From a virus: 27,189 bases of DNA. Positions 3,660-22,605 of this stretch are shown in pieces. Made by a program: the position numbers and the translations under genes. Where the stretch lies: positions 1 through 27,189 of IMG/VR virus record IMGVR_UViG_3300021389_000125. One strand, 5' to 3'. Numbering within the stretch: the first letter of the stretch is position 1; every line of letters begins with the position of its first letter. The notes beneath the pieces are model-generated. The model was not told where the DNA came from. It was given only the letters and a program-made list of their open reading frames with translations, and searched no databases.

Positions 3660-5321
3660 ATGGCATTTGCCAAATTTCATTTGCCCTGTCCTGAGTGTGG
3701 AGGCAGTGATCCTGTCTCCATTAATGAAGATGGATCGGGGCATTGCTTTAGTTGTAACAAACATTTCAGAGACTATGAAGGGGCTTGTAATGGTGGAACA
3801 TCAACAGCCCCACCCCCTGTAGATATAAAACAATATAGGAACAATGCTATGAACCATGCAGAAGGAGAGTTTATAGCCCTAACAGATCGTGGTATATCTT
3901 TAGAGTCTGCCAAAGCCTTTGGGGTTAAGGCAGTAAAAGATTATAAAGGTAATATAATAAAGCATCTCTATCCTTACTATGTAGCCAATGAAATTGTAGG
4001 TTACAAAGTAAGAGAACAAAACAAGATGTTCACATGGAAAGGTAGTGGACAGGACAGCGGTTTATTTGGCGAGCAACTCTGGCCTTCTGGTGGTAAGTTT
4101 ATCACTCTTGTTGAAGGGGAGTGTGATGCAATGGCAGCTTATGAATTGCTTGGTTCCAAATGGCCTGTAGTTTCTATTAAGAATGGGGCTTCCGCTGCAG
4201 TCAAAGATGCTAGACAATCGCTAGAGTTTCTAGAGCAATACGATAATGTAGTTATAAACTTTGATAATGATAAGGCAGGTAAAGAAGCTGCCAAGAAAGT
4301 AGCTACATTATTAACTCCCGGAAAAGCTAAGATAGTTAACTTACCTGATGAGTTCAAAGATGCTAATGATATGTTACGCAAAGGGCAGAGGTCTGCTCAT
4401 GCTTATACATCAGCTTGGTGGAACGCAAAGATATATACTCCAAGTGGTGTACTCAATGCTAAAGATCTTAAAGATAAATACTTTAACAGAGAGACTAAAG
4501 AATCTGTACCTTATCCGTGGGAAGGATTAAACAAAAAGCTGTATGGTCTTAGAGCAGGAGAGCTTGTTACTTTAACAGGTGGTACTGGTCTAGGTAAATC
4601 TAGTATCACTAGAGAGCTAGAGCATTGGCTAATCACAAACACTGAGGACAACGTAGGTATTGTAGCTTTAGAAGAGCATGACATGAGGACACTTGACTGT
4701 CTGATGTCTATAGAAGCTAATGATAGGCTATATGTAGACCATGTTAGAGAAGCCCATGACCCACAATATCTTAAGGATATATACAATAGGATATATGATA
4801 ACGGCAGGGTCTGGATTCATGCTCACTTCGGGGCCAATGATATAGATGCTATCTTCAGTAAGATTAGATTTATGATCATAGGCTGTGGCTGTAAGTGGGT
4901 AGTGGTTGATCATTTACATATGCTTGTATCCTCATCAACTGAGGGGGATGAGCGCAGAACTATTGATAGTATTATGACTAGGCTTCGATCCATTGTGGAA
5001 GAAACAGGGGCAGGGATGATACTAGTTTCTCATTTGCGTAGAGTAGAAGGCAACAGAGGGCATGAGAATGGGGTTACTGTAGGGCTTAATCACTTGCGAG
5101 GCTCTCAGTCTATTGCTCAGTTGTCTGATTGTGTTATAGCTTTAGAACGTAACCAACAATCCGATGATCCTATAGAAGCTCAGACAACTCATCTGCGTGT
5201 ACTTAAATCTAGATATACTGGTGATGTAGGAATGGCTACCCATTTGCTATACAATCAGGATACTGGTAGGCTATCAGAAGTAGATTCTCAAGATTATATA
5301 GATGATGGAGAAGAGCTATGA
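3660..5321 (+). CDS. DNA primase/helicase, T7 gp4-like
   Basis: This 553-residue protein makes RNA primers and unwinds DNA at the phage fork. An N-terminal zinc site uses C10, C13, C29 and C32 with the same spacing as T7 gp4. The TOPRIM primase core shows LVEGECDAM (E152/E154) and FDNDKAG (D202, D204). The RecA-like SF4 helicase has Walker A GGTGLGKSS (307-315), Walker B WVVVDHLH with D417, and HLRGSQSIAQLSD (478-490) with the probable arginine finger R480. The tail is acidic (DYIDDGEEL), as in gp4, where it binds the polymerase. Length is close to gp4 (566). AGAGG at 3646-3650 precedes the ATG. The stop overlaps the polymerase start by 4 bases. Confidence 0.96.
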   Translation: MAFAKFHLPCPECGGSDPVSINEDGSGHCFSCNKHFRDYEGACNGGTSTAPPPVDIKQYRNNAMNHAEGEFIALTDRGISLESAKAFGVKAVKDYKGNIIKHLYPYYVANEIVGYKVREQNKMFTWKGSGQDSGLFGEQLWPSGGKFITLVEGECDAMAAYELLGSKWPVVSIKNGASAAVKDARQSLEFLEQYDNVVINFDNDKAGKEAAKKVATLLTPGKAKIVNLPDEFKDANDMLRKGQRSAHAYTSAWWNAKIYTPSGVLNAKDLKDKYFNRETKESVPYPWEGLNKKLYGLRAGELVTLTGGTGLGKSSITRELEHWLITNTEDNVGIVALEEHDMRTLDCLMSIEANDRLYVDHVREAHDPQYLKDIYNRIYDNGRVWIHAHFGANDIDAIFSKIRFMIIGCGCKWVVVDHLHMLVSSSTEGDERRTIDSIMTRLRSIVEETGAGMILVSHLRRVEGNRGHENGVTVGLNHLRGSQSIAQLSDCVIALERNQQSDDPIEAQTTHLRVLKSRYTGDVGMATHLLYNQDTGRLSEVDSQDYIDDGEEL

Positions 5322-7066
5322 GTTCCTTAGTATTCGACGTAGAAACTGACGGTCTAGATGCTACAAAGATATGGTGTCTAAGTACTTGTGATACTAGCAC
5401 AGAGGAGTTGAACTCTTACTATGGCAACACATTACAAGAAGGACTTAGTAAGTTACAGGAGGCTGACAAACTTATTGGTCACAACATTATAGGCTTTGAC
5501 ATTCCTGTCATTCATAAGCTTACTGGCATTGATCTATCTGCTAAACCATTAGTAGATACCTTAGTGTTGTCTCGTTTATTCAACCCAGTTCGGGAAGGCA
5601 ATCATGGTCTAGAATCATGGGGCTTTAGACTAAAGTTTCCTAAGATTGAGTTTGATGATTATGGACACTTTTCTCAGGAGATGGTGACATACTGTGAGAG
5701 GGATGTACTACTAAACAAAAGAGTGTACGATGCTCTTAGCAAAGAGAAGCAGGGGTTCTCTAGAGATTCTATAAACTTAGAACAGAACATTGCCGGTATC
5801 TTAAACAAGCAAAGAGAGAAGGGCTTTCTACTTGATGTTAAACATGCCTGTCTATTACTTGCTACATTAAAAGATAAGCTCGATGCTACTGTTGCAGAAG
5901 TACATAAGGAATTTAAACCTGAAGAACATACTCTGATATTATATCCTGTTAAAACTGGTGCAGGTAAACTATCTAAGATGGCTGTTAATTCCGAAGGGGT
6001 TAAGTATAGATTAAATTCTGATGAGTACGATGCCCTGAATGAGCAGGATGAAATAAAAAGAATAAGCCGTACAGAGTTTAACTTAGGCTCACGTAAACAG
6101 ATTGGCGAATACTTAAAGAAGTTTGGTTGGAAGCCAACTAAGTTTACGCCTACTGGTCAACCTATTGTAGATGAGGGTACTCTTAAAAGAATAAAAGATA
6201 TACCTCAAGCTACGCTTATCGCTGACTATCTTATGTATCAGAAAAGAATAGCACAGATAAAATCTTGGATAGATAATATAGATAGTATAGATAGGGTACA
6301 TGGTTTTGTGAATCCCAATGGTACAATCACAGGAAGGATGACTCATAGAGAACCTAACCTTGCTCAAGTACCTAACTCTAATGCTCCTTATGGGACAGAG
6401 TGTCGTGCTTGTTGGACAGTACCCAAAGATTATAATCTAGTAGGCATTGATGCCTCTGGATTAGAACTAAGAATGCTTGCTCACTATATGGATAATGAGG
6501 ACTTTACTAATGAAATTTTACATGGGGATATACACACCGCTAATCAAAACCTTGCAGGACTTGAATCAAGAAATCAGGCGAAGACATTCATCTATGCCTT
6601 TATATACGGAGCAGGAAATGAAAAGTTGGGAACAGTGGTTGGAGGAGGCAAACAAGATGGTCAAAGACTTAAACAACGTTTCCTCGATAATCTCCCATCA
6701 CTTAAACATCTCAAAGATAGAGTTACAAGAGCATCAGCTAAAGGCTTCATTAAAGGATTAGATGGTAGGAAGATATACATTAGGTCAGCACACTCAGCCC
6801 TCAATGCTTTATTGCAGGGCGGTGGCAGTATCGTAATGAAGAAAGCATTAGAGCTACTTAACAGTTACATTATAGACAATGATTTAGATGCCCACTTTGT
6901 AGCTAACATACATGATGAATGGCAGATAGAAGTTATAAAGAAAGATGCTAAACTTGTAGGTGAACTAGGTATAAAGGCAATACAAAACGCAGGACTTGCT
7001 TTCAATATGAAGTGTCCTTTAGATGGTGAATATCATGTAGGAAATAACTGGAGTGAAACACATTAA
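5318..7066 (+). CDS. DNA polymerase, Pol I family (T7 gp5-like) with 3'-5' exonuclease
   Basis: This 582-residue replicative polymerase has an intact N-terminal proofreading domain: Exo I FDVETDG (D7, E9), Exo II HNIIGFD (D61) and Exo III YCERD (Y125, D129). The polymerase domain has GRMTHREPNLAQVP (339-352), motif A GIDASGLELRMLAH (D378), motif B RNQAKTFIYAFIYGAG (R418, K422, Y426) and motif C HDEWQIE (H532, D533). It is shorter than T7 gp5 (704), mainly because the exonuclease domain and thumb insertions are smaller. The residue equivalent to E. coli Pol I 762 is Tyr, as in T7. It is translationally coupled to primase (ATGA). It probably works with SSB and a processivity factor; T7 uses host thioredoxin. 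Confidence 0.96.
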   Translation: MSSLVFDVETDGLDATKIWCLSTCDTSTEELNSYYGNTLQEGLSKLQEADKLIGHNIIGFDIPVIHKLTGIDLSAKPLVDTLVLSRLFNPVREGNHGLESWGFRLKFPKIEFDDYGHFSQEMVTYCERDVLLNKRVYDALSKEKQGFSRDSINLEQNIAGILNKQREKGFLLDVKHACLLLATLKDKLDATVAEVHKEFKPEEHTLILYPVKTGAGKLSKMAVNSEGVKYRLNSDEYDALNEQDEIKRISRTEFNLGSRKQIGEYLKKFGWKPTKFTPTGQPIVDEGTLKRIKDIPQATLIADYLMYQKRIAQIKSWIDNIDSIDRVHGFVNPNGTITGRMTHREPNLAQVPNSNAPYGTECRACWTVPKDYNLVGIDASGLELRMLAHYMDNEDFTNEILHGDIHTANQNLAGLESRNQAKTFIYAFIYGAGNEKLGTVVGGGKQDGQRLKQRFLDNLPSLKHLKDRVTRASAKGFIKGLDGRKIYIRSAHSALNALLQGGGSIVMKKALELLNSYIIDNDLDAHFVANIHDEWQIEVIKKDAKLVGELGIKAIQNAGLAFNMKCPLDGEYHVGNNWSETH

Positions 7067-12648: not shown

Positions 12649-12870
12649 ATGGACAACAGACAAGAAGGTAACTTAATTTCATTCAGGGTGTTCTTAGCAA
12701 GGGATGGTAATATTATATCTGAGTATTCACACTTACCGTTTGAAGATATAGAAAGAATATTTCCAACAGATGAGATACCAATTATAAAAAAGGTTGTTAA
12801 GGAAGGCTCTCTAAAACTAGAGGGTCTACACAACTTATTAGAAAAAGAAGTGCAGAGTACTATTTACTAG
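12649..12870 (+). CDS. 73-residue protein at the end of the early operon, unknown function
   Basis: GAGGAGG lies 5 bases before the ATG and the gene follows nrdB by 9 bases, so it ends the + strand operon. The product begins with a probable strand pair (LISFRVFLARDGNIISEY) and is then helical and charged (IPIIKKVVKEGSLKLEGLHN). No family is recognised. Its last 11 bases overlap the end of the convergent EF-hand gene on the other strand. I see no intrinsic terminator after it, so read-through into the antisense of the late operon is possible. Confidence 0.65.
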   Translation: MDNRQEGNLISFRVFLARDGNIISEYSHLPFEDIERIFPTDEIPIIKKVVKEGSLKLEGLHNLLEKEVQSTIY

Positions 12871-13186
12871 GCTTATGCATGAAAGCTGTCGCGCCCATGT
12901 AAGTACCAACAATACCACATAATGAAAAATAAAATAGACCTAATAAATCAGATAGTGCATTAACTCTACTGTCTGGTATTAACGGAGTAAAGAGTACAAT
13001 AGTTGTTACTGTCATTACAATTATAGCTAACCACGCCATTAACTTTTGAGCCTCTGATTTTTCTTCTCTTAACTCTAGGTCAATCATTTCTTTAGCGCGA
13101 TCTATCTCATCATCAGTTACAGTCCCATCTCTATTAAGATCAAACTGTTCATACTTAGATTGTAGTTCTAATTTCTTAGCGTTCAT
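12860..13186 (-). CDS. EF-hand protein with two membrane helices
   Basis: The product is 108 residues. Residues 16-27 form a canonical calcium-binding EF-hand loop (D16, N18, D20, G21, T22, V23, E27) in a helix-loop-helix context. Two hydrophobic segments follow (MAWLAIIVMTVTTIVLFTPLI and LLGLFYFSLCGIVGTYMGATAF), giving a helical hairpin in the membrane with the EF-hand at its N-terminus. It is the last gene of the late operon. Its size and two helices fit a small holin or antiholin, and the EF-hand could tie its state to calcium. The holin idea is inference from location and topology; a 3-TM holin-like protein is also encoded at the right end. The end overlaps the convergent early gene. Confidence 0.75.
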   Translation of the reverse strand: MNAKKLELQSKYEQFDLNRDGTVTDDEIDRAKEMIDLELREEKSEAQKLMAWLAIIVMTVTTIVLFTPLIPDSRVNALSDLLGLFYFSLCGIVGTYMGATAFMHKPSK

Positions 13187-13864: not shown

Positions 13865-14044
13865 TTATCTGATAAACAATTGCTCTGCAGCACAAGTATC
13901 TGCATACCTACACATCCTTACATTCTGTGTGAACACTGCTTGATCTGTCCAATTCCATTCAGGATGTTGTTGTAAACTTAAAGATAGTCGAGTACCGCCA
14001 CAACTTGTAATTAATAACATTGACATTAATCCTAGATATTTCAT
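13865..14044 (-). CDS. Small lipoprotein, outer-membrane spanin candidate
   Basis: The product is 59 residues, too short to be noticed by length alone. It begins MKYLGLMSMLLITSCGG: a lysine, a hydrophobic core and a lipobox ITSC at residues 12-15, so lipid attachment at C15 and a mature peptide of 45 residues. Two further Cys (residues 45 and 51) may form a disulfide in the periplasm. It starts in a 4-base overlap with the end of the cytochrome/monooxygenase gene and lies 13 bases before the 154-residue gene. Small lipoproteins at the lysis end of a phage operon are usually o-spanins that help break the outer membrane; an accessory role for the exported metalloprotein next door is the alternative. 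Confidence 0.75.
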   Translation of the reverse strand: MKYLGLMSMLLITSCGGTRLSLSLQQHPEWNWTDQAVFTQNVRMCRYADTCAAEQLFIR

Positions 14045-15327
14045 TCTTTGGCTATCATCCTTCTATTGTTTCGTTCGTTTAAAAGTTCTTGATATTTATT
14101 ATCATCAAGATGTGTCACAGCAATCCAAGCGTGGGTCATCTCATCGCCTGTTCTACTACCACCAACAACCCACATGTCAGAGTCGGGGTTGTTTGGATTT
14201 TCTTTTGTGTTGTCATACCATTGCTTCAATACTAAGACTGCCCCTGTTGGAAGAAGCGGTGCAAAGTCTGGCTCATATATATGACTGTGATGCCACGTTG
14301 CGCTCCAGTTAGATACCTGACTGACTTGTTCTGTGCGTCCAGTTTCAGGATAGAATATTTCAAAGGAAGCTGCATTCATTCTAAGATGACCGTGAGGTTG
14401 CCAAGAATCTATCCGTACAGGATGATCAAAAGAATGAAAGCCTTGTGTCATTAAGTACCCATTAGGGGGAATAACTATATCGTCTTGGTCGCTTATTCTA
14501 TACAGCTTTAAGTCTTGTTTGTATTTAAGTTCTTCAGATTCCTCTGGAGAATATAACCACATGCCTATATCTACGATGTTATTCTCAATAACAGATTCTG
14601 GAGCCATTGCTCCAAGACCTCCGGGGAACATATGAATGTCCCATGCTATCTCTGCATTTGCAGGTATAGTACGACACACGCCCTCCGGTACTACCTCACC
14701 CCACTTACCCATAGCATACTCTGTGAGCATACCAAATCTTTCACCATTTAAAATAACACTACTATTAGCATGGTGTACCACACTCTTAGCCTCGCCTCTT
14801 GGCTTAACTTGAATAGCTTTAATGCATCTGTCCTCTGCTAAACCACTTGGCACATTATGTTTATGCCACAAATCATTTCCACTAGCAGGTATATCTATAG
14901 GCGTAGAGGGGATAACCACTGTAGGCTCTCCTAAGTCTTCATAGAAGTTCCACTGACTAGGATCTGGTAGTACCAAAGGTGCTAGAGCTACATCTCTATT
15001 GCCGTACTCTGAGCCAGTATTAACCCATTCTACTATTGTATCTATCTCTTCTTGTTCTAATCTCCAATCGCCATGCAGTTCCTGTATACCTATTTCTTTA
15101 TCATAAGCATAGGGAGGCATCTCACGATTGGCTACTTTAATCTGTATTAAAGGACTCCACGGACGTACCTGCTCATATGTTTCAAACTGCATTGGACCTA
15201 TGCCACCCTGACGATGACACACAACACAGTTATTATTTATAATATCTGCTACGTCATCTACATAAGTAACATCAGCTTGAGATACTGATGCGATTGATAT
15301 ACAAATAGCTAATAAAGTCTTTTTCAT
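14041..15327 (-). CDS. Exported cytochrome c fused to a copper type II (PHM/DBH-like) monooxygenase domain
   Basis: The product is 428 residues. A signal peptide (MKKTLLAICISIASVSQA) sends it to the periplasm. A c-type haem domain follows, with CVVCH at 34-38 and a likely axial Met in REMPPYA (M70). Residues about 145-410 resemble copper type II ascorbate-dependent monooxygenases: H185-H186 (VVHHANSS), H232 (WDIHMFPGG), H312-x-H314 (QPHGHLRM) and M397 (GDEMTHAW), matching the ligands of both copper sites in PHM. The expected reaction is O2-dependent hydroxylation with electrons through the haem; the substrate is unknown. Haem attachment would need the host Ccm system. GC (32 of 60 at 14641-14700) is well above the virion genes (11 of 60 at 16681-16740). 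It is a probable acquired host-metabolism gene in the late operon. Confidence 0.85.
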   Translation of the reverse strand: MKKTLLAICISIASVSQADVTYVDDVADIINNNCVVCHRQGGIGPMQFETYEQVRPWSPLIQIKVANREMPPYAYDKEIGIQELHGDWRLEQEEIDTIVEWVNTGSEYGNRDVALAPLVLPDPSQWNFYEDLGEPTVVIPSTPIDIPASGNDLWHKHNVPSGLAEDRCIKAIQVKPRGEAKSVVHHANSSVILNGERFGMLTEYAMGKWGEVVPEGVCRTIPANAEIAWDIHMFPGGLGAMAPESVIENNIVDIGMWLYSPEESEELKYKQDLKLYRISDQDDIVIPPNGYLMTQGFHSFDHPVRIDSWQPHGHLRMNAASFEIFYPETGRTEQVSQVSNWSATWHHSHIYEPDFAPLLPTGAVLVLKQWYDNTKENPNNPDSDMWVVGGSRTGDEMTHAWIAVTHLDDNKYQELLNERNNRRMIAKE

Positions 15328-15405: not shown

Positions 15406-15774
15406 TTAATAACTCCATATAAAAGGGCGTGGTCTTTCGGGGGAATCTTCTATGTCATCTAAATGTATAAACCTACTACTCCCTTTTTGATTTATACCTA
15501 TGCCTTTAAACTCTCCAGACTTTACAGCAGCTTCTATAAGAGCGTATGCGCGTTCTCCAGAGACTCCTATATCTATCGCATGTCCTGTAGAATGTGACCC
15601 TGCTGCTTTCTTACGAGCTTCTATGGGGTGTTCTGGGCAACGGTAAGCACTATTTACAGGGAAAGGAAACCCTAACTCTTCACGAAGTATTTCTATCTTA
15701 TTCATAAAAGAATTGTCTATGCCTTCAGTACCACAGTGGGTACATTTAAGCTCATCTTTAGTAAAGTATTTCAT
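15406..15774 (-). CDS. M15-family zinc peptidase (Peptidase_M15_3), endolysin candidate
   Basis: The product is 122 residues and cuts peptide cross-links of peptidoglycan by family knowledge. SAYRCPEH (42-49), SHSTGHAIDI (60-69) and RFIHLDD (101-107) give the zinc ligands H61, D68 and H104, with D106 beside them. A KCTHCG pair (C11, C14) at the N-terminus is common in phage members and may be structural. There is no signal peptide, so it needs a holin to reach the wall, unless it is carried in the virion. It follows the 1615-residue gene with a one-base stop/start overlap (TAATG), with AAGGAA upstream. GC is high (30 of 60 at 15541-15600) compared with the virion genes. Confidence 0.9.
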   Translation of the reverse strand: MKYFTKDELKCTHCGTEGIDNSFMNKIEILREELGFPFPVNSAYRCPEHPIEARKKAAGSHSTGHAIDIGVSGERAYALIEAAVKSGEFKGIGINQKGSSRFIHLDDIEDSPERPRPFIWSY

Positions 15775-18700
15775 TAATAATTCCTTTGTAAACTTCTTAG
15801 TATCCTACCGCCTTGATTACGTTCTACTCTATCTTGTTTAAGTTCTGGTTTAGTTATGTAATCCATTGCTTTAGATATAAAGTCTGGAGGCACATCATTT
15901 ATATTTGTAACAAGATCATATCCTCTTTCTATAGGGATCTTATTTTTAAATCTTAAATTAGTTCCTTCTGGTCCTAACCTGTTTTCAATCCTACTTTTAA
16001 ATTGATCTCTAGATAAACCTTCTCTATTAGCTGTTATGCCCATGCGATTATTAAATCTATCTGTATGTTCTGAGTTAGGATCTCTGCCTCCTACTATTTG
16101 ATTTTTTGCTGAAAAAATTTCTCTGCCTTGAATAAGAGGAGTTCTAAAATAAGCATTATCATAACCTAACAATGCATGTTGAATTGCATTAAAGGCTTCT
16201 TCATCTCCAGAGATACCTAGTGATATATCATTCCTGTCAAATTTTCTAACTTCTTCTTCAGTTAAAAATCTTTTAGGTACACTTCGTCCTTGCTCATTCT
16301 TTTTAGGTACAAAGCTTCCTTCATCATTTTTTTCTAATTCCCACTCAGCAAATTTAAGTTGTTTATTTTCTCCCAGTACACCTTTATCTACTAGTTCATT
16401 ATTAAAATTTACTGCTTCTATAAATGTTTCTAATTGTTGCTTAGTGCCACGACCTATTAAAGTCGCCAATGCACTTTTTACTTTACTTTTTAAACCACCT
16501 CCTGCAAAGGGGTATCTAAAAACTCTATCTTCTTGATCTGTAAAAGCGTCCCCTGCCTGTTGATCATATGGTAGCCCTGTCATTTTATCTATACGTTCAT
16601 CAGGTTCTACTGGGGCTTGAGGTACGTTGTATACTTCTCCTCCTTTAGCTAGTTTTAAATCTATAGGCTCATCTTCTTTTGGTGTGTTTTCTTTTTCTTC
16701 TTTATTAAAATATAAATTAGTATTTAACATTTTTGTGTATTCATTCATTAAAGCTGTAGATAACTTACCTACACTATTTAATTTAGAATCTTTATCAAAA
16801 GGAGTTTTCTTAAATAAATTAACTATATTAATATCTGTTAAAGGCTGTTGAGGATTATAATATTTTCCTGAAACTAAAGAAGACATTACGTCTTTACTAA
16901 CTCCTCTTTCTTCTAATACCATTAATGTTTTACCTAATCCAATTAATTCTTTAGTAGCTAGAAATTGACGGTAAAAATCTTGTGCGTTTCTATACCTTGC
17001 TTTTTCTATATTAATATAATCTTCTACAATTTCTTCAGGTGTATTTTGATAATTAAAAGAAAGTCTTTTAACATCATTATTTTTACCATTAAATTCAGAA
17101 ACCCTATATCCAAAACTTACTTCTGGATCAAGTTCTGTAGCACGAATACCCATAAAGGTAGCGATAAGTTCTAAATTAGTAGGCTTTACTTTACCTGTAT
17201 TACGATTAGGAACTTCAAGCATTGCATCTGATTCTAAAAGGTTTTGTATATTTATTCCTGTAGGAACAAAAGATTCAAATACATGATATATACCTTGTTG
17301 AAGTTTATCTTCAAAAGGAGTACCTTGATTAAATAGTTCTTTACCTCTTGGAGTTCTACCATCGGAGGACATTAATGCATATCCTACATCACTAAGAGCC
17401 TGTGTAAAAATAGGTTGATCTACATAAGGACTAATAAGATCTCCTAAAGCAGTAAAAGTAGCCTTTACTATTGCTTTATCTAAGTCATCTCCTCTTAACT
17501 TTGCATTTTGTACTTCTTCATATAATAATTCAAAAGGAGCGTTTACAGTTTCGTAAGAATTTAAAAACTGAGTATCTATAGTGTATATTTTATCGTCCAT
17601 TATAAATGGTAATCTAGGAGATACAGTTGACCACGGTGTTTCATCTGCTGTTTGTATAGCGTCTAATTGTTCAGTAGTAAAGCCATACAATTTTGATAGT
17701 GCTTCTTGCGCCCCATACCACATTCCTGCTGTAGCTGTTCTTCCTGCAAATCGTTTGGCTCCTCTTTTTTGTAATTGACTATTTCCAGATGCCATTTCTT
17801 TAAATGCTTCTCTATAAATATTAGCACTTGTCCTTACTATTTCAGCAGGGAAAGATACAAAACTACCAAAAGGCATGTATCGTAAAGCTTTAATTCCCGG
17901 AGGAACAAAATCATAATTAGGTAAAGTAGCTCTAATTTTTCTAGCTGCTTCAATTTTTAATGTTTCTAAATCTGTATCAGGAAAAGCTTTTTGTAAAGTA
18001 GATAACTCTGAGTTATAATTTACTACTTTAAAATAATCATCTACTCCTAAATAAAATGCTTCTGCAGGTTTTGCAACCCAATCATCTGTAACATCTGTTA
18101 CTGCTTTAACTTTATCTTTAGGTAATCCATAACCTCTTAATTTATCATTAACTGTTACTAATATATTTTGATCCGCATCCATTCCTGAATCTAACAAAGC
18201 TCTAAATTCATTGATGGTAGCGTTTGTATTAATTATTCCTAATCTTTGATATTCTTGATATACTTCATTTAAAGCTTCATCACTTTGAGAAGTTTGATTT
18301 TTTAAACTTTTAAATGTTTGAACAGCCCCCTTACCAAAAGGATTGATACCATTGGCAGGACCAAATTGTAAACCTCCAAGAATATTTCTTGATTGTGTGG
18401 GGAGACTATAGACAGTTTTAGCTTTTTGAGAAAATCCTTTAAAAGATAAAAAATTCCTAGCTGTACCATCTACAAAATTACCAAGCATACTACCTTTAAC
18501 ATTAAATGAAATAGTACCTTGTTCTTGTTTTAGTGACGCAGCTATTTCTGGTGTTGTGTAATATTCATATTGATTATTCTTAGCAAAATCTAATTGAGAA
18601 CCTGTGCCAGATATAGGTGTATTGTATACATCTGTATCAAATATTACTTCATTACTATCTTTTGTTATTGTTACTTTAGATTCTACAGAAGGAACAACTT

Positions 18701-20621
18701 GCGTGTCGGGTAGGTTGTCTGATGCAGGAGATTTAGCAACTCTAAATATATATTTATTTTCTCCAAGCCTTAAAAGATTATCATAGAATCTAGAGTCTTC
18801 AGAAAACTTAGACATTTTTTGTGCAGAAATTAAAAAAGATTCATCTGCATTTTCTATTTCACCCATTAATTTTCTTATAGCTACAGGTATATCTTCTTTA
18901 CCTTTAAAAATATTATTATTTAATTTTTGAACATTAGCTATATAATCTAGTCCTACATTATCTCCTTTATCTAATATAGCGTTGACATCTAATTTAGCTT
19001 TTTGTCTTGCAAGATCAGGTAGCTCTCCTTCGTTCATGTATCTTTTAGCTATAAAATCTATAGCCTCATCTTTAACTTCATCAGAAGGTTTATAAATTGG
19101 ATCTTCAAAAAGTCTAAATGATCTTCTAATATAAGATCCCATATTATCTTCTATTATAGTTTTTAAATCGCCATCTACCATAGATGATTTAGCTAATCTA
19201 TCTGATAACTGATCTAAAAAATTTCTACCTTCTAAAACTTGAGAAGCTAATTCCTCTGGAAGATCATAATTTTTAGCAATGTTTTCTATTTGATTTAAAA
19301 AACTATTAGAGGGGCTGTCTAGTTTTTCTGTAAAAGCTTTACTTACTCTTTTTAAAACATCAGGATCTTGATCGCTTAAATTATTTATTAGTTTATTTAA
19401 ATTTCTAGAAATAACTTCTGCTTCATTAACTGTAGCTCTTTGTGCATATTTAGAATCATTAAATGCATCAAAAGCTCTGGGTGTCCAGTAACCTCTAGAA
19501 GTAAATAAAGTATTAAATATTCTATTAAGACCACTGCCCTGTTGCATTTTTATTTGTGCTTCGCCTTCAGGAGTTTCACTATATCTTAAATTTGAATCTT
19601 CTTTTAAGTTCCTAATAGAAGAGGCTTCTTCTAATATATTATCACTTCTATCAGAATAGTTTTCTTTCCACCCCTCATTACCTTTAACTACTTCCTTTTT
19701 TTCTTTAAAGAAAGTAACAAGTGCTGTGCCTTTATCTTCTTTTGTAAGTCTGTCTGGAGTTTTATTAAATTTATTTTTTATAAACTTTCTAAAACTATTA
19801 GCACCACCTATTACATCTACTAATGCACCAATTGTTGCGCCTTCGCCCATAAGCTTTAATCTTTTTAAAGATTCAGTATCATCTTGATCTGTTGCTAAGA
19901 ATAAAAAGTTTTCCCATTCTTTAGCTGCTTCTTCACCTAATGCAGTTTCTACTACGTTACTTATACTTTGATCTGGATCGGTTAATCCTTGATCTACTAT
20001 TATACCTGTAGCTGTACTTTTTAAAAAATTGTTACGCCACGTTTTAGAACTAGCTAATAAATCAGGTAGGTTTTTAAAGACTTTAACGCCTCCAACTAAG
20101 TAAGTCCCAAACTCTGCTGCCATGCCTATACCAGTATCCATTGTATGAATGTTACCAGTTTCAGGATCGTACAAAGATCTAACATCTTCGTTTATAACTC
20201 TAGCGATTGGCTCGGCTGCTTTCTTTTTAACAAAAGAAGACATTTCAGGACTTTGCAATATTTCTTTTTGTTCACTACTTATAGCACCTACAGCTTCTCC
20301 AAGTTGAGTAACTCCATATTTTGTTAAATTAGCAAGGTCAGCTTTAGTGTCAGCAAATATTCTGCCTACATCTATTTTAACATTTCTTAAATAGTCAGGA
20401 TCTTTTTCATAAGTCGGTCCTTTTAAACTAAGTGGTACTTCATCTACTTCTGTTTTAGAAACAACTACTGGAGCAGAACCGCTTTGATATTCATCTTTAT
20501 TTTCATTAAGAGTATCAGGATACTTTTCTTGATATTTTTCCCATGCTTGAGCATCTGACACATCTTCAGGAACACCAGTATATGTTTTACCGTTAGGTAA
20601 TTTTACTTCTCTAGTTGCCAT
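15774..20621 (-). CDS. Giant internal-virion-type protein (1615 residues), T7 gp16 analogue
   Basis: This is the largest gene of the window and probably a protein ejected into the host with the DNA. It starts REVKLPNGKTYTGVPED, then AWEKYQEKYPD, an opening I know from marine podovirus internal proteins. Long helical stretches follow (AKDLKDK-like charged helices, a SLPTQSRNILGGLQFGPANG block). A Gly/Pro linker LAKGGEVYNVPQAPVEPDER with RIDKMTGLPYDQQAG then leads to a separate C-terminal region (about residues 1420-1615). That region contains FNAIQHALLGY and SEHTDRFNNRMG (1477-1528), like the DUF6973 type found in polymorphic-toxin C-termini. No lytic transglycosylase motif is evident. AAGGAAA precedes the ATG. 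The gene is very AT-rich (11 of 60 at 16681-16740). Confidence 0.8.
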   Translation of the reverse strand: MATREVKLPNGKTYTGVPEDVSDAQAWEKYQEKYPDTLNENKDEYQSGSAPVVVSKTEVDEVPLSLKGPTYEKDPDYLRNVKIDVGRIFADTKADLANLTKYGVTQLGEAVGAISSEQKEILQSPEMSSFVKKKAAEPIARVINEDVRSLYDPETGNIHTMDTGIGMAAEFGTYLVGGVKVFKNLPDLLASSKTWRNNFLKSTATGIIVDQGLTDPDQSISNVVETALGEEAAKEWENFLFLATDQDDTESLKRLKLMGEGATIGALVDVIGGANSFRKFIKNKFNKTPDRLTKEDKGTALVTFFKEKKEVVKGNEGWKENYSDRSDNILEEASSIRNLKEDSNLRYSETPEGEAQIKMQQGSGLNRIFNTLFTSRGYWTPRAFDAFNDSKYAQRATVNEAEVISRNLNKLINNLSDQDPDVLKRVSKAFTEKLDSPSNSFLNQIENIAKNYDLPEELASQVLEGRNFLDQLSDRLAKSSMVDGDLKTIIEDNMGSYIRRSFRLFEDPIYKPSDEVKDEAIDFIAKRYMNEGELPDLARQKAKLDVNAILDKGDNVGLDYIANVQKLNNNIFKGKEDIPVAIRKLMGEIENADESFLISAQKMSKFSEDSRFYDNLLRLGENKYIFRVAKSPASDNLPDTQVVPSVESKVTITKDSNEVIFDTDVYNTPISGTGSQLDFAKNNQYEYYTTPEIAASLKQEQGTISFNVKGSMLGNFVDGTARNFLSFKGFSQKAKTVYSLPTQSRNILGGLQFGPANGINPFGKGAVQTFKSLKNQTSQSDEALNEVYQEYQRLGIINTNATINEFRALLDSGMDADQNILVTVNDKLRGYGLPKDKVKAVTDVTDDWVAKPAEAFYLGVDDYFKVVNYNSELSTLQKAFPDTDLETLKIEAARKIRATLPNYDFVPPGIKALRYMPFGSFVSFPAEIVRTSANIYREAFKEMASGNSQLQKRGAKRFAGRTATAGMWYGAQEALSKLYGFTTEQLDAIQTADETPWSTVSPRLPFIMDDKIYTIDTQFLNSYETVNAPFELLYEEVQNAKLRGDDLDKAIVKATFTALGDLISPYVDQPIFTQALSDVGYALMSSDGRTPRGKELFNQGTPFEDKLQQGIYHVFESFVPTGINIQNLLESDAMLEVPNRNTGKVKPTNLELIATFMGIRATELDPEVSFGYRVSEFNGKNNDVKRLSFNYQNTPEEIVEDYINIEKARYRNAQDFYRQFLATKELIGLGKTLMVLEERGVSKDVMSSLVSGKYYNPQQPLTDINIVNLFKKTPFDKDSKLNSVGKLSTALMNEYTKMLNTNLYFNKEEKENTPKEDEPIDLKLAKGGEVYNVPQAPVEPDERIDKMTGLPYDQQAGDAFTDQEDRVFRYPFAGGGLKSKVKSALATLIGRGTKQQLETFIEAVNFNNELVDKGVLGENKQLKFAEWELEKNDEGSFVPKKNEQGRSVPKRFLTEEEVRKFDRNDISLGISGDEEAFNAIQHALLGYDNAYFRTPLIQGREIFSAKNQIVGGRDPNSEHTDRFNNRMGITANREGLSRDQFKSRIENRLGPEGTNLRFKNKIPIERGYDLVTNINDVPPDFISKAMDYITKPELKQDRVERNQGGRILRSLQRNY

Positions 20622-20630
20622 TAGTTTTCC

Positions 20631-22019
20631 TTAATCATCCCAACCTACTGTATCAGAATTACTCATAAAAGATCTGACTGATCCTGAAAAAGCATTTTGC
20701 AATTTAAACATTTCTGCAAGATTTTCATTTAGTCTTGTTACTGCTTCCGTTTTTTCATTTGGATCATCACTCATAGTAGCTATTATAGCGTCAATTTCTA
20801 CAAAGGTAGTACTTGCTCTAGCCCAGAAAGCGTTTATTGCAGCTTCTTTTGCAGGATCTCTTAGGTTTTTATTTTCAACCATTTTATTTTTTAGCAATTC
20901 TCCAAAAGCATTATACTCTGCTACACTTCTAAAATTTGTAAATTTAATGTTATCTTCACCTGCTTCTTTCATTAATGCACCATAAGCATCACGATTTAAT
21001 TGTTGATTTGCCATGTCTAATAAATCTGGAAGTGCTTTAATTGTTGCTGCTACTCTCATTTCTGGAGTCTCGTTTGGATCTTCAAAAGTTGTAACTTCTT
21101 TTGCACCAAATGTTACTTCTACTTCACCTGTGTTTCTATGTGTTTTAGTAGTCTTCTTTTGAAGAACTAATAGACCGTCTGTTCCTATATATTTAGTCAT
21201 CTCTTGTTCTGTAATAAACATTCTATCATCGTCTGTCTTAAAATCCTCGCCTCCTAAATCTTCTTCAGTAAGCCCTGACATATCATAAGCAGAAATTAAA
21301 TTTCTTTCTTTATTAAATACATCTGCAAGAGTATTAAATTTATTATTGTTTTTATATAGAGGACTGTTCATTAAATCTTGCATAGCTTTGTCTTCTAATT
21401 CTTCTCTGCTTCTACCACCAAATGCGCTTCTTGCTTTTTGAAATACAAGATCACCAAATCTTTTAGGGTTTACAGTGTTAGAAAGTTCTGAAAGCCTAGC
21501 TGCTCGTTCTTCTGCTGTGCCTGTTCCTTGTAAAGCATTATAAGCCTCATCAAATCTTGCGCCCCATAAAGAAGATAACTCTTGTAATTCTTTTTGTACT
21601 GAAGCTTTAAATGGACCTACTTCTCCTATAAGTTTATAAGAACCATCATTTCTTGATTGTAATTCTGCTTCTGCTCTAGCTAAAAAAGAAGGATACTGTT
21701 GATTATAAATATACTCACTGGCAGTACCTCCTGTAGCGTCAATGGCTTTTTTAATTCGTAATACTTCTTCAGCATTTTTATTTGCTAATTCAAAAGTAGA
21801 AGAAGCAGCCATAGCATTAGGATCAGTAGCAAACATTTCTCTGTCTTTACTTAATGCACTTTCAGCTATAGCTCTTGTACCTGCATCTATAACAGGCGGT
21901 AAAAGCAACTCAGTCCAAGCTCTTCTTTTCTGAAAAGATTCTTGTCGGTTTCTAAACCTGTCATCTCTTGCTCGTTTTTGAGAAAGTAAACTTGATCCTA
22001 ATTCTGTTGCTTTGCTCAT
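20631..22019 (-). CDS. 462-residue helical virion-module protein
   Basis: The protein is helical and charged throughout, with a basic start (LSQKRARDDRFRNRQESFQKR followed by RAWTELLLPPVIDAG) and long helices with Ala, Glu and Lys. No enzyme motif is visible. Marine podoviruses commonly carry a protein with a 'KRARDDR' opening before the giant internal protein; I take it as an internal core or ejection protein, comparable in place to T7 gp15. AAGGAA precedes the ATG, and 9 bases separate it from the 1615-residue gene. Function is inferred from position only. Confidence 0.75.
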   Translation of the reverse strand: MSKATELGSSLLSQKRARDDRFRNRQESFQKRRAWTELLLPPVIDAGTRAIAESALSKDREMFATDPNAMAASSTFELANKNAEEVLRIKKAIDATGGTASEYIYNQQYPSFLARAEAELQSRNDGSYKLIGEVGPFKASVQKELQELSSLWGARFDEAYNALQGTGTAEERAARLSELSNTVNPKRFGDLVFQKARSAFGGRSREELEDKAMQDLMNSPLYKNNNKFNTLADVFNKERNLISAYDMSGLTEEDLGGEDFKTDDDRMFITEQEMTKYIGTDGLLVLQKKTTKTHRNTGEVEVTFGAKEVTTFEDPNETPEMRVAATIKALPDLLDMANQQLNRDAYGALMKEAGEDNIKFTNFRSVAEYNAFGELLKNKMVENKNLRDPAKEAAINAFWARASTTFVEIDAIIATMSDDPNEKTEAVTRLNENLAEMFKLQNAFSGSVRSFMSNSDTVGWDD

Positions 22020-22020
22020 T

Positions 22021-22605
22021 TTAATTCCTTCCTAATAAACTATTATTATCAACATCAACATCTTGTTCAGGCTGTGCTAATAAACTAGACACTTCTATAT
22101 CTTCTATTTTTTCTTGTATATCAACAGGCAGTACTCCTGATGGAATACTATTTTTCTTAGCAGCATTACTTAATTTTTCAAATTTATCTTTTTGCATTTC
22201 TACATTAAACATTTCAGGATTTTGATCTTCGTTTTCACCATCATAAATTACAGCATCTATATCTGCTCTTTCAGCAAGTGCTAATAGCATATAGCATAAT
22301 GGCTCTGCTAAGATCATCATTAAATCAGGATTCCATTTACCTTCTGTAAACCCTTGAAATAATAATACTTGAGTTATTTCCATTAAAGGCACACCATCAT
22401 CCATCATACTTATTAGAGATGCATATGCTTCTTTTTGAGTTATTATCTCTAATAAATATTTAAGACTCTTATCTAAGTCTACAAACTCTGGAGCTTTTTC
22501 CCACGGATAAGGGCTGTCAGGATCGTTAGTCAACCCTTGTCCGGGAATAGGTCTATTTAAAGAAACTGTAGACTTAATAGGAGTGTCTGTTGGTTGCATC
22601 GCCAT
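22021..22605 (-). CDS. 194-residue conserved virion-module protein
   Basis: The N-terminus is extended and Pro-rich (LNRPIPGQGLTNDPDSPYPWEK), then a helical core follows (LKYLLEIITQKEAYASLISMM, VLLFQGFTEGKWNPDLMMIL, CYMLLALAERADIDAV). The C-terminus is acidic and disordered. Proteins with 'IPGQxLTNDPDxPYPWE' occur in several marine phages, including non-podoviruses, in structural blocks. I have no function for it. It lies between the 371- and 462-residue genes with 1-12 base gaps, so it is co-expressed with them. Confidence 0.75.
   Translation of the reverse strand: MAMQPTDTPIKSTVSLNRPIPGQGLTNDPDSPYPWEKAPEFVDLDKSLKYLLEIITQKEAYASLISMMDDGVPLMEITQVLLFQGFTEGKWNPDLMMILAEPLCYMLLALAERADIDAVIYDGENEDQNPEMFNVEMQKDKFEKLSNAAKKNSIPSGVLPVDIQEKIEDIEVSSLLAQPEQDVDVDNNSLLGRN

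What the first reader, a model, noticed from the sequence alone, without database searches (positions are those of the whole stretch)
16038..16193. Toxin-like motif block near the C-terminus of the giant internal protein
FNAIQHALLGY followed about 30 residues later by SEHTDRFNNRMG matches, from memory, the 'NAxRHA ... D.xNNxxG' pattern of DUF6973-type domains found at the C-termini of polymorphic toxins. A Gly/Pro-rich linker (KGGEV...RIDKMTGLPYDQQAG) separates it from the rest, as if it were a module. A protein that enters the host with the DNA and carries an effector domain would be a first-minute takeover weapon.
Basis: inference. Interest (0 to 1): 0.55.

Follow-up and report, generated by a model that had tools for sequence, protein, structure and literature searches.

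The report
Swappable lipid-enzyme-like cargo on phage protein
The end of this marine phage's giant protein carries a small helical domain that looks like a divergent lipid-head-group enzyme of the kind bacteria use as toxins, plugged in behind a short conserved connector that related phages join to quite different domains.

Summary
The family guess holds indirectly. The window domain has no Pfam hit. Its relatives keep an invariant H, E, DxxNN and near-invariant G. Cousins in the same place behind the same linker hit Pfam DUF6973 weakly (best 9.5e-6, under cut-off where scored alone). A profile made only from window-type sequences finds 23 of 24 cousins and nothing else in 3314 ORFs. The pattern matches the active site published for the Lipocone superfamily (SAA, Wnt, VanZ, lipid-II toxin TelC): His, Glu, Asp on successive helices, Asn at Asp+4, a capping Gly. 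An AlphaFold model has this helix order, and the cousin's best structural match is serum amyloid A (Z 6.3). Profile comparison with one Lipocone family (YfiM) was not significant. The linker is a near-invariant protein block joining unrelated cores to many C-terminal modules (muramidase, LysM, DUF6973-like). In two phages the gene is split exactly there. Best reading: exchangeable cargo of an ejection-type protein, predicted to act on envelope lipid head groups. Delivery, catalysis and toxicity are inferred. "Takeover weapon" is unproven.

The parts
15774..20621 (-). giant protein, 1615 aa; large ejection-type virion protein (gp16-like by position and size only)
   Evidence: core relatives in Cellulophaga phi18:3 gp123 (annotated from MS/MS as virion protein), HTVC027P gp85, 023Pt_psg01, vB_Pun_Y3
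16692..20621 (-). core, about aa 1-1310
   Evidence: alignment A1: most relatives end near or before the position of the linker; BLAST to linker loci
16521..16649 (-). conserved linker ('cargo tag'), about aa 1325-1367
   Evidence: 210 relatives in viral contigs, best 80 kept; 19-aa block 87.5% identical between proteins with unrelated cores, third bases near codon-usage background
15777..16433 (-). DUF6973-like, Lipocone-like cargo domain, aa 1397-1615 (last 21 residues low confidence)
   Evidence: A2, A5; AlphaFold2 model pLDDT 83.2, pTM 0.76; hhalign and hmmsearch to DUF6973-hitting cousins
16176..16178 (-). His1482, invariant, in the helix of model residues 79-92
16119..16121 (-). Glu1501, invariant, in the helix of model residues 98-114
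16047..16061 (-). Asp1521, Asn1524, Asn1525 (DxxNN), invariant, in the helix of model residues 120-137
16038..16040 (-). Gly1528, near-invariant, Asp+7
15406..15774 (-). M15 peptidase (endolysin-type), next gene, shares one base with the end of the giant gene
   Evidence: PF08291 9.2e-13; a similar ORF follows the cargo in L039 and L077 and in L103, L104, by eye
20631..22019 (-). 462-aa protein, gp15-like by position and size only
   Evidence: no family hit
22021..22605 (-). 194-aa protein, gp14-like by position and size only
   Evidence: no useful family hit

Best explanation
The block is the active-site part of a divergent DUF6973-like, Lipocone-type domain that rides as exchangeable cargo at the C-terminus of a large phage ejection-type protein. 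A conserved peptide marks the junction between core and cargo; related phages join the same peptide to other modules or encode it at the start of a separate cargo gene. Most likely mechanism: the protein is packed in the virion and leaves with the genome, and the domain uses His1482, Glu1501, Asp1521 and Asn1525 to cleave or swap phosphate-linked head groups of envelope lipids (lipid II-like carriers or phospholipids) in the periplasm or at the inner membrane, helping entry and/or stopping host wall synthesis. Shown by computation: the module, linker, swaps, invariant residues and helix order. Inferred: packaging, ejection, enzyme activity, substrate.
For: Homology chain: 25 domains share invariant H, E, D, N, N. 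Pfam DUF6973 is hit by 3 of 3 cousins scanned alone (1.1e-5, 1.3e-4, 6.4e-4) and by 9 of 56 post-linker regions. A2 against A3: hhalign prob 82.8, E 9.3e-6. The A2 profile, which holds no cousin, finds 23 of 24 cousins and no ORF without the domain among 3314. Fold: window model helices 79-92 (H86), 98-114 (E105), 120-137 (D125, N128, N129), pLDDT 83.2; cousin model has the same helix order, pLDDT 82.5. Best structural match of the cousin model: serum amyloid A3, Z 6.3, 81-82 residues, next row 4.1. The published Lipocone site (PMC12419801, sections read) is H in H2, E in H3, D in H4, a further polar position in H4 and a Gly near its end, with Asn at Asp+4 after a small residue in one clade; our invariants were computed before that text was read. 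E. coli YfiM and 7 relatives show DxxxH, KE, DxxxDxxG at the same spacing. Cargo slot. Envelope theme: Pesticin-type muramidase 7e-12, LysM 1.3e-13. Virion link: phi18:3 gp123.
Against: The window domain has no hit of its own in Pfam, PHROGs or NCBIfam. hhalign with the YfiM alignment was not significant (prob 0.5% or less). The window model has no PDB match (Foldseek none at E 0.001; VIA best Z 3.2), and Z 6.3 for a small helical cousin is within what the tool calls a common arrangement. The pocket was not measured. The link to a virion protein rests on about 26% identity over part of the core. No isolate in the phage collection carries the domain or the linker at the sensitivity used, so nothing ties it to a known host or infection stage. 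The domain is not always last (L053, L075) and in L055 lies before the linker.
Confidence: 0.52

Rival explanations
1. A toxin or takeover effector that acts in the host cytoplasm on a target other than lipids, delivered with the DNA.
For: DUF6973-like cousins; the core family carries an ART-PolyVal domain in phage Y3 (2.3e-6, under cut-off); polyvalent proteins are proposed to be injected with DNA (PMC5512222, abstract).
Against: The residue set is that of a lipid-head-group site; the clearest other modules of the slot act on or bind peptidoglycan.
Confidence: 0.2
2. A non-catalytic module: a membrane- or virion-docking domain whose conserved residues hold the fold or bind a lipid head group without cutting it.
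For: Some Lipocone families are inactive (Met-Wnt, PMC12419801); large ejection proteins must dock on membranes (PMC8954989, passages).
Against: Five polar positions including His, Glu and Asp are invariant in 25 sequences, some only 16% identical to the window, which is more than a pure fold usually needs.
Confidence: 0.18
3. A superinfection- or defence-related protein: expressed late and kept in the cell rather than ejected.
For: PMC12419801 notes intracellular Min-Wnt domains in some tailed phages and suggests superinfection limits.
Against: The domain is fused to, or encoded directly after, a large protein whose relative is a virion protein, beside the putative ejection genes.
Confidence: 0.07

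Closest known systems
Pfam PF22322 (DUF6973)
   Same: same motif order H, E, DxxNN, G; cousins in the same slot hit it
   Different: the window domain itself does not reach it; it reads N-A-x-x-H instead of G-D-A-x-x-H and has a long strand-rich stretch between its first helix and the His helix
Lipocone superfamily (Burroughs, Nicastro, Aravind 2025, PMC12419801): SAA, Min-Wnt, YfiM, TelC, CapCone
   Same: His, Glu, Asp on successive helices, Asn at Asp+4, Gly at Asp+7; cousin model best matches SAA
   Different: no significant profile match to YfiM; lacks the Arg of sNxxGR; DUF6973 is not named in the passages and sections I read, and a full-text search for the word found no paper
TelC, lipid II phosphatase toxin (described in PMC12419801; PMC5555719 and PMC6193138 seen in a search listing only)
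   Same: predicted kind of reaction and site
   Different: delivered by type VII secretion with an immunity protein; here carried by a phage protein, no immunity gene found
Polyvalent proteins (Iyer 2017, PMC5512222)
   Same: giant phage protein with domains of unrelated activity; the core is linked to ART-PolyVal in Y3
   Different: the window protein shows no known LPD or enzyme domain; a conserved linker before the cargo was not found in the passages I read
MuF polymorphic toxins of temperate phages (PMC5576092, abstract)
   Same: phage structural protein with variable C-terminal toxin
   Different: no MuF domain; those are tied to temperate phages, while I saw no integrase here (by eye)
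T7 gp16 (PMC8954989, passages)
   Same: order of three proteins and their size range; large ejection protein
   Different: no sequence match of the core profile to solved T7 proteins; T7's enzyme domain is N-terminal

Membership tests
Pfam PF22322 (DUF6973) | profile score over the curated 27-bit cut-off | tested here: not met
   no hit for the window; cousins 19.8-25.5 bits. Filed as a divergent relative, not a member.
Pfam PF22322 (DUF6973) | common ancestry shown through intermediate sequences | tested here: met
Lipocone superfamily | His (H2), Glu (H3), Asp (H4) conserved | tested here: met
   invariant in 25 of 25 aligned domains, in three successive helices
Lipocone superfamily | polar residue after the Asp (Asn at +4 in one clade) and Gly near the end of H4 | tested here: met
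   N129 = D125+4 invariant, G132 = D125+7 in 90% or more
Lipocone superfamily | four-helix cone fold | tested here: inconclusive
   helix order fits; SAA3 best match of the cousin at Z 6.3; window model has no clear match
Lipocone superfamily | significant profile-profile link to a known family | tested here: inconclusive
   only YfiM could be tried (8 sequences): not significant; the other families were not available
Lipocone superfamily | conserved residues line one pocket; lipid head-group activity | not testable with these tools
   no model coordinates are given out; needs biochemistry
Polymorphic toxin (MuF type) | MuF domain | tested here: not met
   no Pfam MuF hit at E 10
Polymorphic toxin (general) | constant part followed by variable C-terminal domains | tested here: met
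Polymorphic toxin (general) | cognate immunity gene | tested here: inconclusive
   the next gene is an M15 peptidase; no immunity search was made
Polyvalent protein | several domains of disparate activity in one polypeptide | tested here: inconclusive
   suggested in relatives, not visible in the window protein

The most novel reading that the evidence does not exclude
Uncultured marine phages share a plug-in system for virion-delivered enzymes: a conserved peptide of about 40 residues acts as a cargo tag (for packaging, docking or release) in front of interchangeable modules, and its commonest cargo so far is a Lipocone-type lipid-head-group enzyme, so that a relative of the Wnt/SAA/TelC fold is used to breach or disarm the host envelope at the moment of infection.
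Probability: 0.33. Interest if true: 0.82.

Novelty: new variant of a known kind. Interest (0 to 1): 0.6.

Why it matters
If right, it gives a testable enzymatic role to DUF6973-like domains and extends the Lipocone superfamily to ejection-type phage proteins. The linker would be a ready-made marker for finding and ranking many unknown phage-delivered modules in marine viromes: what follows the tag is cargo. A peptide that keeps its sequence while both neighbours change is also a direct test case for how phages sort proteins into the virion.

Tried and rejected
Direct family searches of the window domain: Pfam, PHROGs and NCBIfam gave nothing. Window-type domain against phage isolates: no match; a cousin and a second window-type domain: no match. 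Plasmids: one weak chance-like hit. Bacterial genomes: two scans found no relative, so no bacterial DUF6973 protein could be compared directly. Solved structures by sequence: only chance-level hits for A2, A3, A5 and A6. Structure libraries for the window model: none at E 0.001 (two BFVD phage proteins at Foldseek probability 0.96 and 0.90, E 0.21 and 0.28, left as leads). YfiM profile comparison: not significant. T7-like structures for the core: none. A DNA-level explanation of the linker (recombination site) was considered: third bases at fourfold sites agree in 0.438 of cases against 0.355 expected from codon usage, so conservation is mainly at the protein level. Caution on that number: loci were fetched by exact 8-mers of this linker and only the best 80 of 210 were kept, which raises the identity. 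The PHROG label 'endolysin' (phrog_7348, 7 of 56) was not used, as that profile is 2564 positions long and matched different parts in different proteins.

Full report
WHAT WAS CLAIMED AND WHAT IS THERE. The window is a 27,189-base virus record. The ORF 15774-20621 (-) encodes 1615 aa. FNAIQHALLGY begins at aa 1477 and SEHTDRFNNRMG ends at base 16038, exactly as reported. No library profile hits the domain: Pfam, PHROGs and NCBIfam are silent, and PF22322 (which is DUF6973, 124 positions, 27-bit cut-off) finds nothing in the record.

RELATIVES. A scan of viral contigs with the 198-aa C-terminus gave one near-identical contig. A scan with the 67-aa linker gave 224 pattern matches, 210 relatives, of which the best 80 were kept (L008-L087). 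Behind the linker lie very different C-termini; a motif search and then an HMM show the domain in 45 of these 80 loci: 21 of the window type (N-A-x-x-H) and 24 of a cousin type (G-D-A-A-R-H). This count uses the A5 profile, which was trained on some of them, and includes near-identical contigs. Fifteen window-type domains share invariant H, E, D, N, N (A2); adding cousins, 25 sequences still share them, with L89 and G132 near-invariant (A5).

LINK TO DUF6973. Three of three cousins scanned alone hit PF22322 (E 1.1e-5, 1.3e-4, 6.4e-4, all under the curated cut-off) and none of seven window-type domains did; in a wider scan 9 of 56 post-linker regions hit it. hhalign of window-type against cousin profiles gives probability 82.8 and E 9.3e-6. 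A profile made of window-type sequences only, run over 3314 ORFs, finds 23 of 24 cousins (E 6.3e-6 to 5.3e-3) at the motif region and no ORF without the domain.

FOLD AND ACTIVE SITE. AlphaFold2 on A5 gives pLDDT 83.2 and pTM 0.76: helix 79-92 holds H86, helix 98-114 holds E105, helix 120-137 holds D125, N128 and N129. The cousin (L026, A6) folds with pLDDT 82.5 and the same helix order. The window model has no PDB match. The cousin's two best rows under VIA-align are mouse serum amyloid A3, Z 6.3, rmsd 3.3-3.4, 81-82 residues, with the next row at 4.1; the tool warns that such Z values can mean only a common helical arrangement. Serum amyloid A led to the Lipocone paper (PMC12419801; abstract, sections 5, 7, 9, 11, 12, 29 and passages read). 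It defines a site of His, Glu and Asp on helices H2-H4, with a further polar position and a Gly near the end of H4, and in one clade an Asn four after the Asp preceded by a small residue. All five positions are invariant or near-invariant here, in that order and spacing, and were listed before that text was read. In an alignment of E. coli YfiM, a published Lipocone, with 7 relatives, the invariants DxxxH, KE and DxxxDxxG have the same spacing. Against this, hhalign to YfiM is not significant. The pattern [DN]xxxH..[KR]E..Dxxx[ND]xxG is in 46 of 48 domain ORFs, 4 of 3266 others, and 52 of 20000 shuffles of the window domain; it was loosened to fit both families, so it is a description more than an independent test.

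THE LINKER AND THE SWAPS. Among 71 cores, 23 pairs share at least 45% core identity with no BLAST similarity after the linker, and 104 pairs share the C-terminus with no core similarity. Some of the 23 may still carry distant forms of the same domain (L027 and L047 both do). For the window: L009 is 60% identical in the domain but about 35% over the whole aligned protein; L011, L021 and L077 match only from the linker on; L026 and L047 match the core but carry the cousin domain. In L039 and L077 the gene is split exactly at this place: a core gene (1131 and 1294 aa) is followed by a separate gene that starts with the linker and ends with the domain. The 19-aa block that starts EPDERIDKMTG is 87.5% identical on average between 1522 pairs with unrelated cores and falls to about 5% forty residues before and sixty after it; third-base agreement is 0.438 against 0.355 expected, so the constraint is on the protein. 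Selection by the search raises this identity. Two scans that started from the domain, not the linker, found 5 and 1 loci, two of these being the query contigs again; in the two new ones that are long enough to tell, L103 and L104, the same linker is present.

WHAT SITS IN THE SLOT. Other post-linker modules include a Pesticin-type muramidase (7e-12) and LysM (1.3e-13). In phage vB_Pun_Y3 the core has an ART-PolyVal domain in front (2.3e-6, under cut-off). The core is related, at about 26% over part of its length, to Cellulophaga phi18:3 gp123, annotated as a virion protein from MS/MS. Upstream lie proteins of 462 and 194 aa; with the 1615-aa protein they match T7 gp15, gp14 and gp16 in order and rough size only. 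No T7 structure matches the core profile.

HOW IT MOST LIKELY WORKS. Established families behind the inference: Lipocone enzymes remove or swap phosphate-linked lipid head groups, and TelC does so on lipid II outside the cytoplasm (PMC12419801, sections 7 and 29). T7 gp16 spans periplasm, inner membrane and cytoplasm after ejection (PMC8954989, passages). Put together: the cargo domain is carried with an ejection-type protein and acts on envelope lipids during entry. Steps shown: domain, residues, helix order, linker, swaps. Steps inferred: presence in the virion of this phage, ejection, catalysis, substrate, effect on the host.

NOVELTY. Phage proteins with polymorphic or polyvalent effector parts are known (PMC5576092, PMC5512222), and Lipocone toxins are known. 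What I did not find in print is the linker-marked cargo slot and a Lipocone-like domain on an ejection-type protein; searches: in the held library only, none of which used the linker itself as a term. The linker was also absent from the phage isolate collection at E 0.01.

Noticed in passing
window 14041-15327 (-): 428-aa secreted-looking protein with a CVVCH haem-type motif and a weak cytochrome hit (0.0039, under cut-off); it resembles, from memory, copper ascorbate-dependent monooxygenases. Also in L002 and L077; no match in phage isolates. A possible host-derived metabolic gene in this phage group.
   Followed up: partly
L039:5897-9617 and L077:5902-9856: stand-alone cargo genes that begin with the linker, each directly after a core gene.
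   Followed up: partly
L010, L019, L022, L024, L030, L067, L085, L088, L090, L091: a second recurring module after the linker, ending in a stretch like VGFNPxRHSxFYDRxTGxPVxxAExVIQVGPLVLAK (by eye); L030 hits phrog_586 of unknown function.
   Followed up: no
window 15777-16649 (-) and linker loci: short GG-K/R-h-L..L motifs (KGGEV, GGGLKSKV, GGRILRSL) recur between modules and at the protein's end; they might be processing or sorting sites.
   Followed up: no
window 12860-13186 (-): 108-aa protein with an EF-hand-like stretch (DLNRDGTVTDDE; 0.0033, under cut-off) and hydrophobic segments by eye.
   Followed up: no
window 5318-7066 (+): DNA polymerase closest to Pelagibacter phage HTVC115P, 49% identity, which suggests a pelagiphage-like relative.
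   Followed up: partly
L055:3-786: the domain lies before the linker here, and the protein ends soon after the linker, the reverse of the usual order.
   Followed up: no
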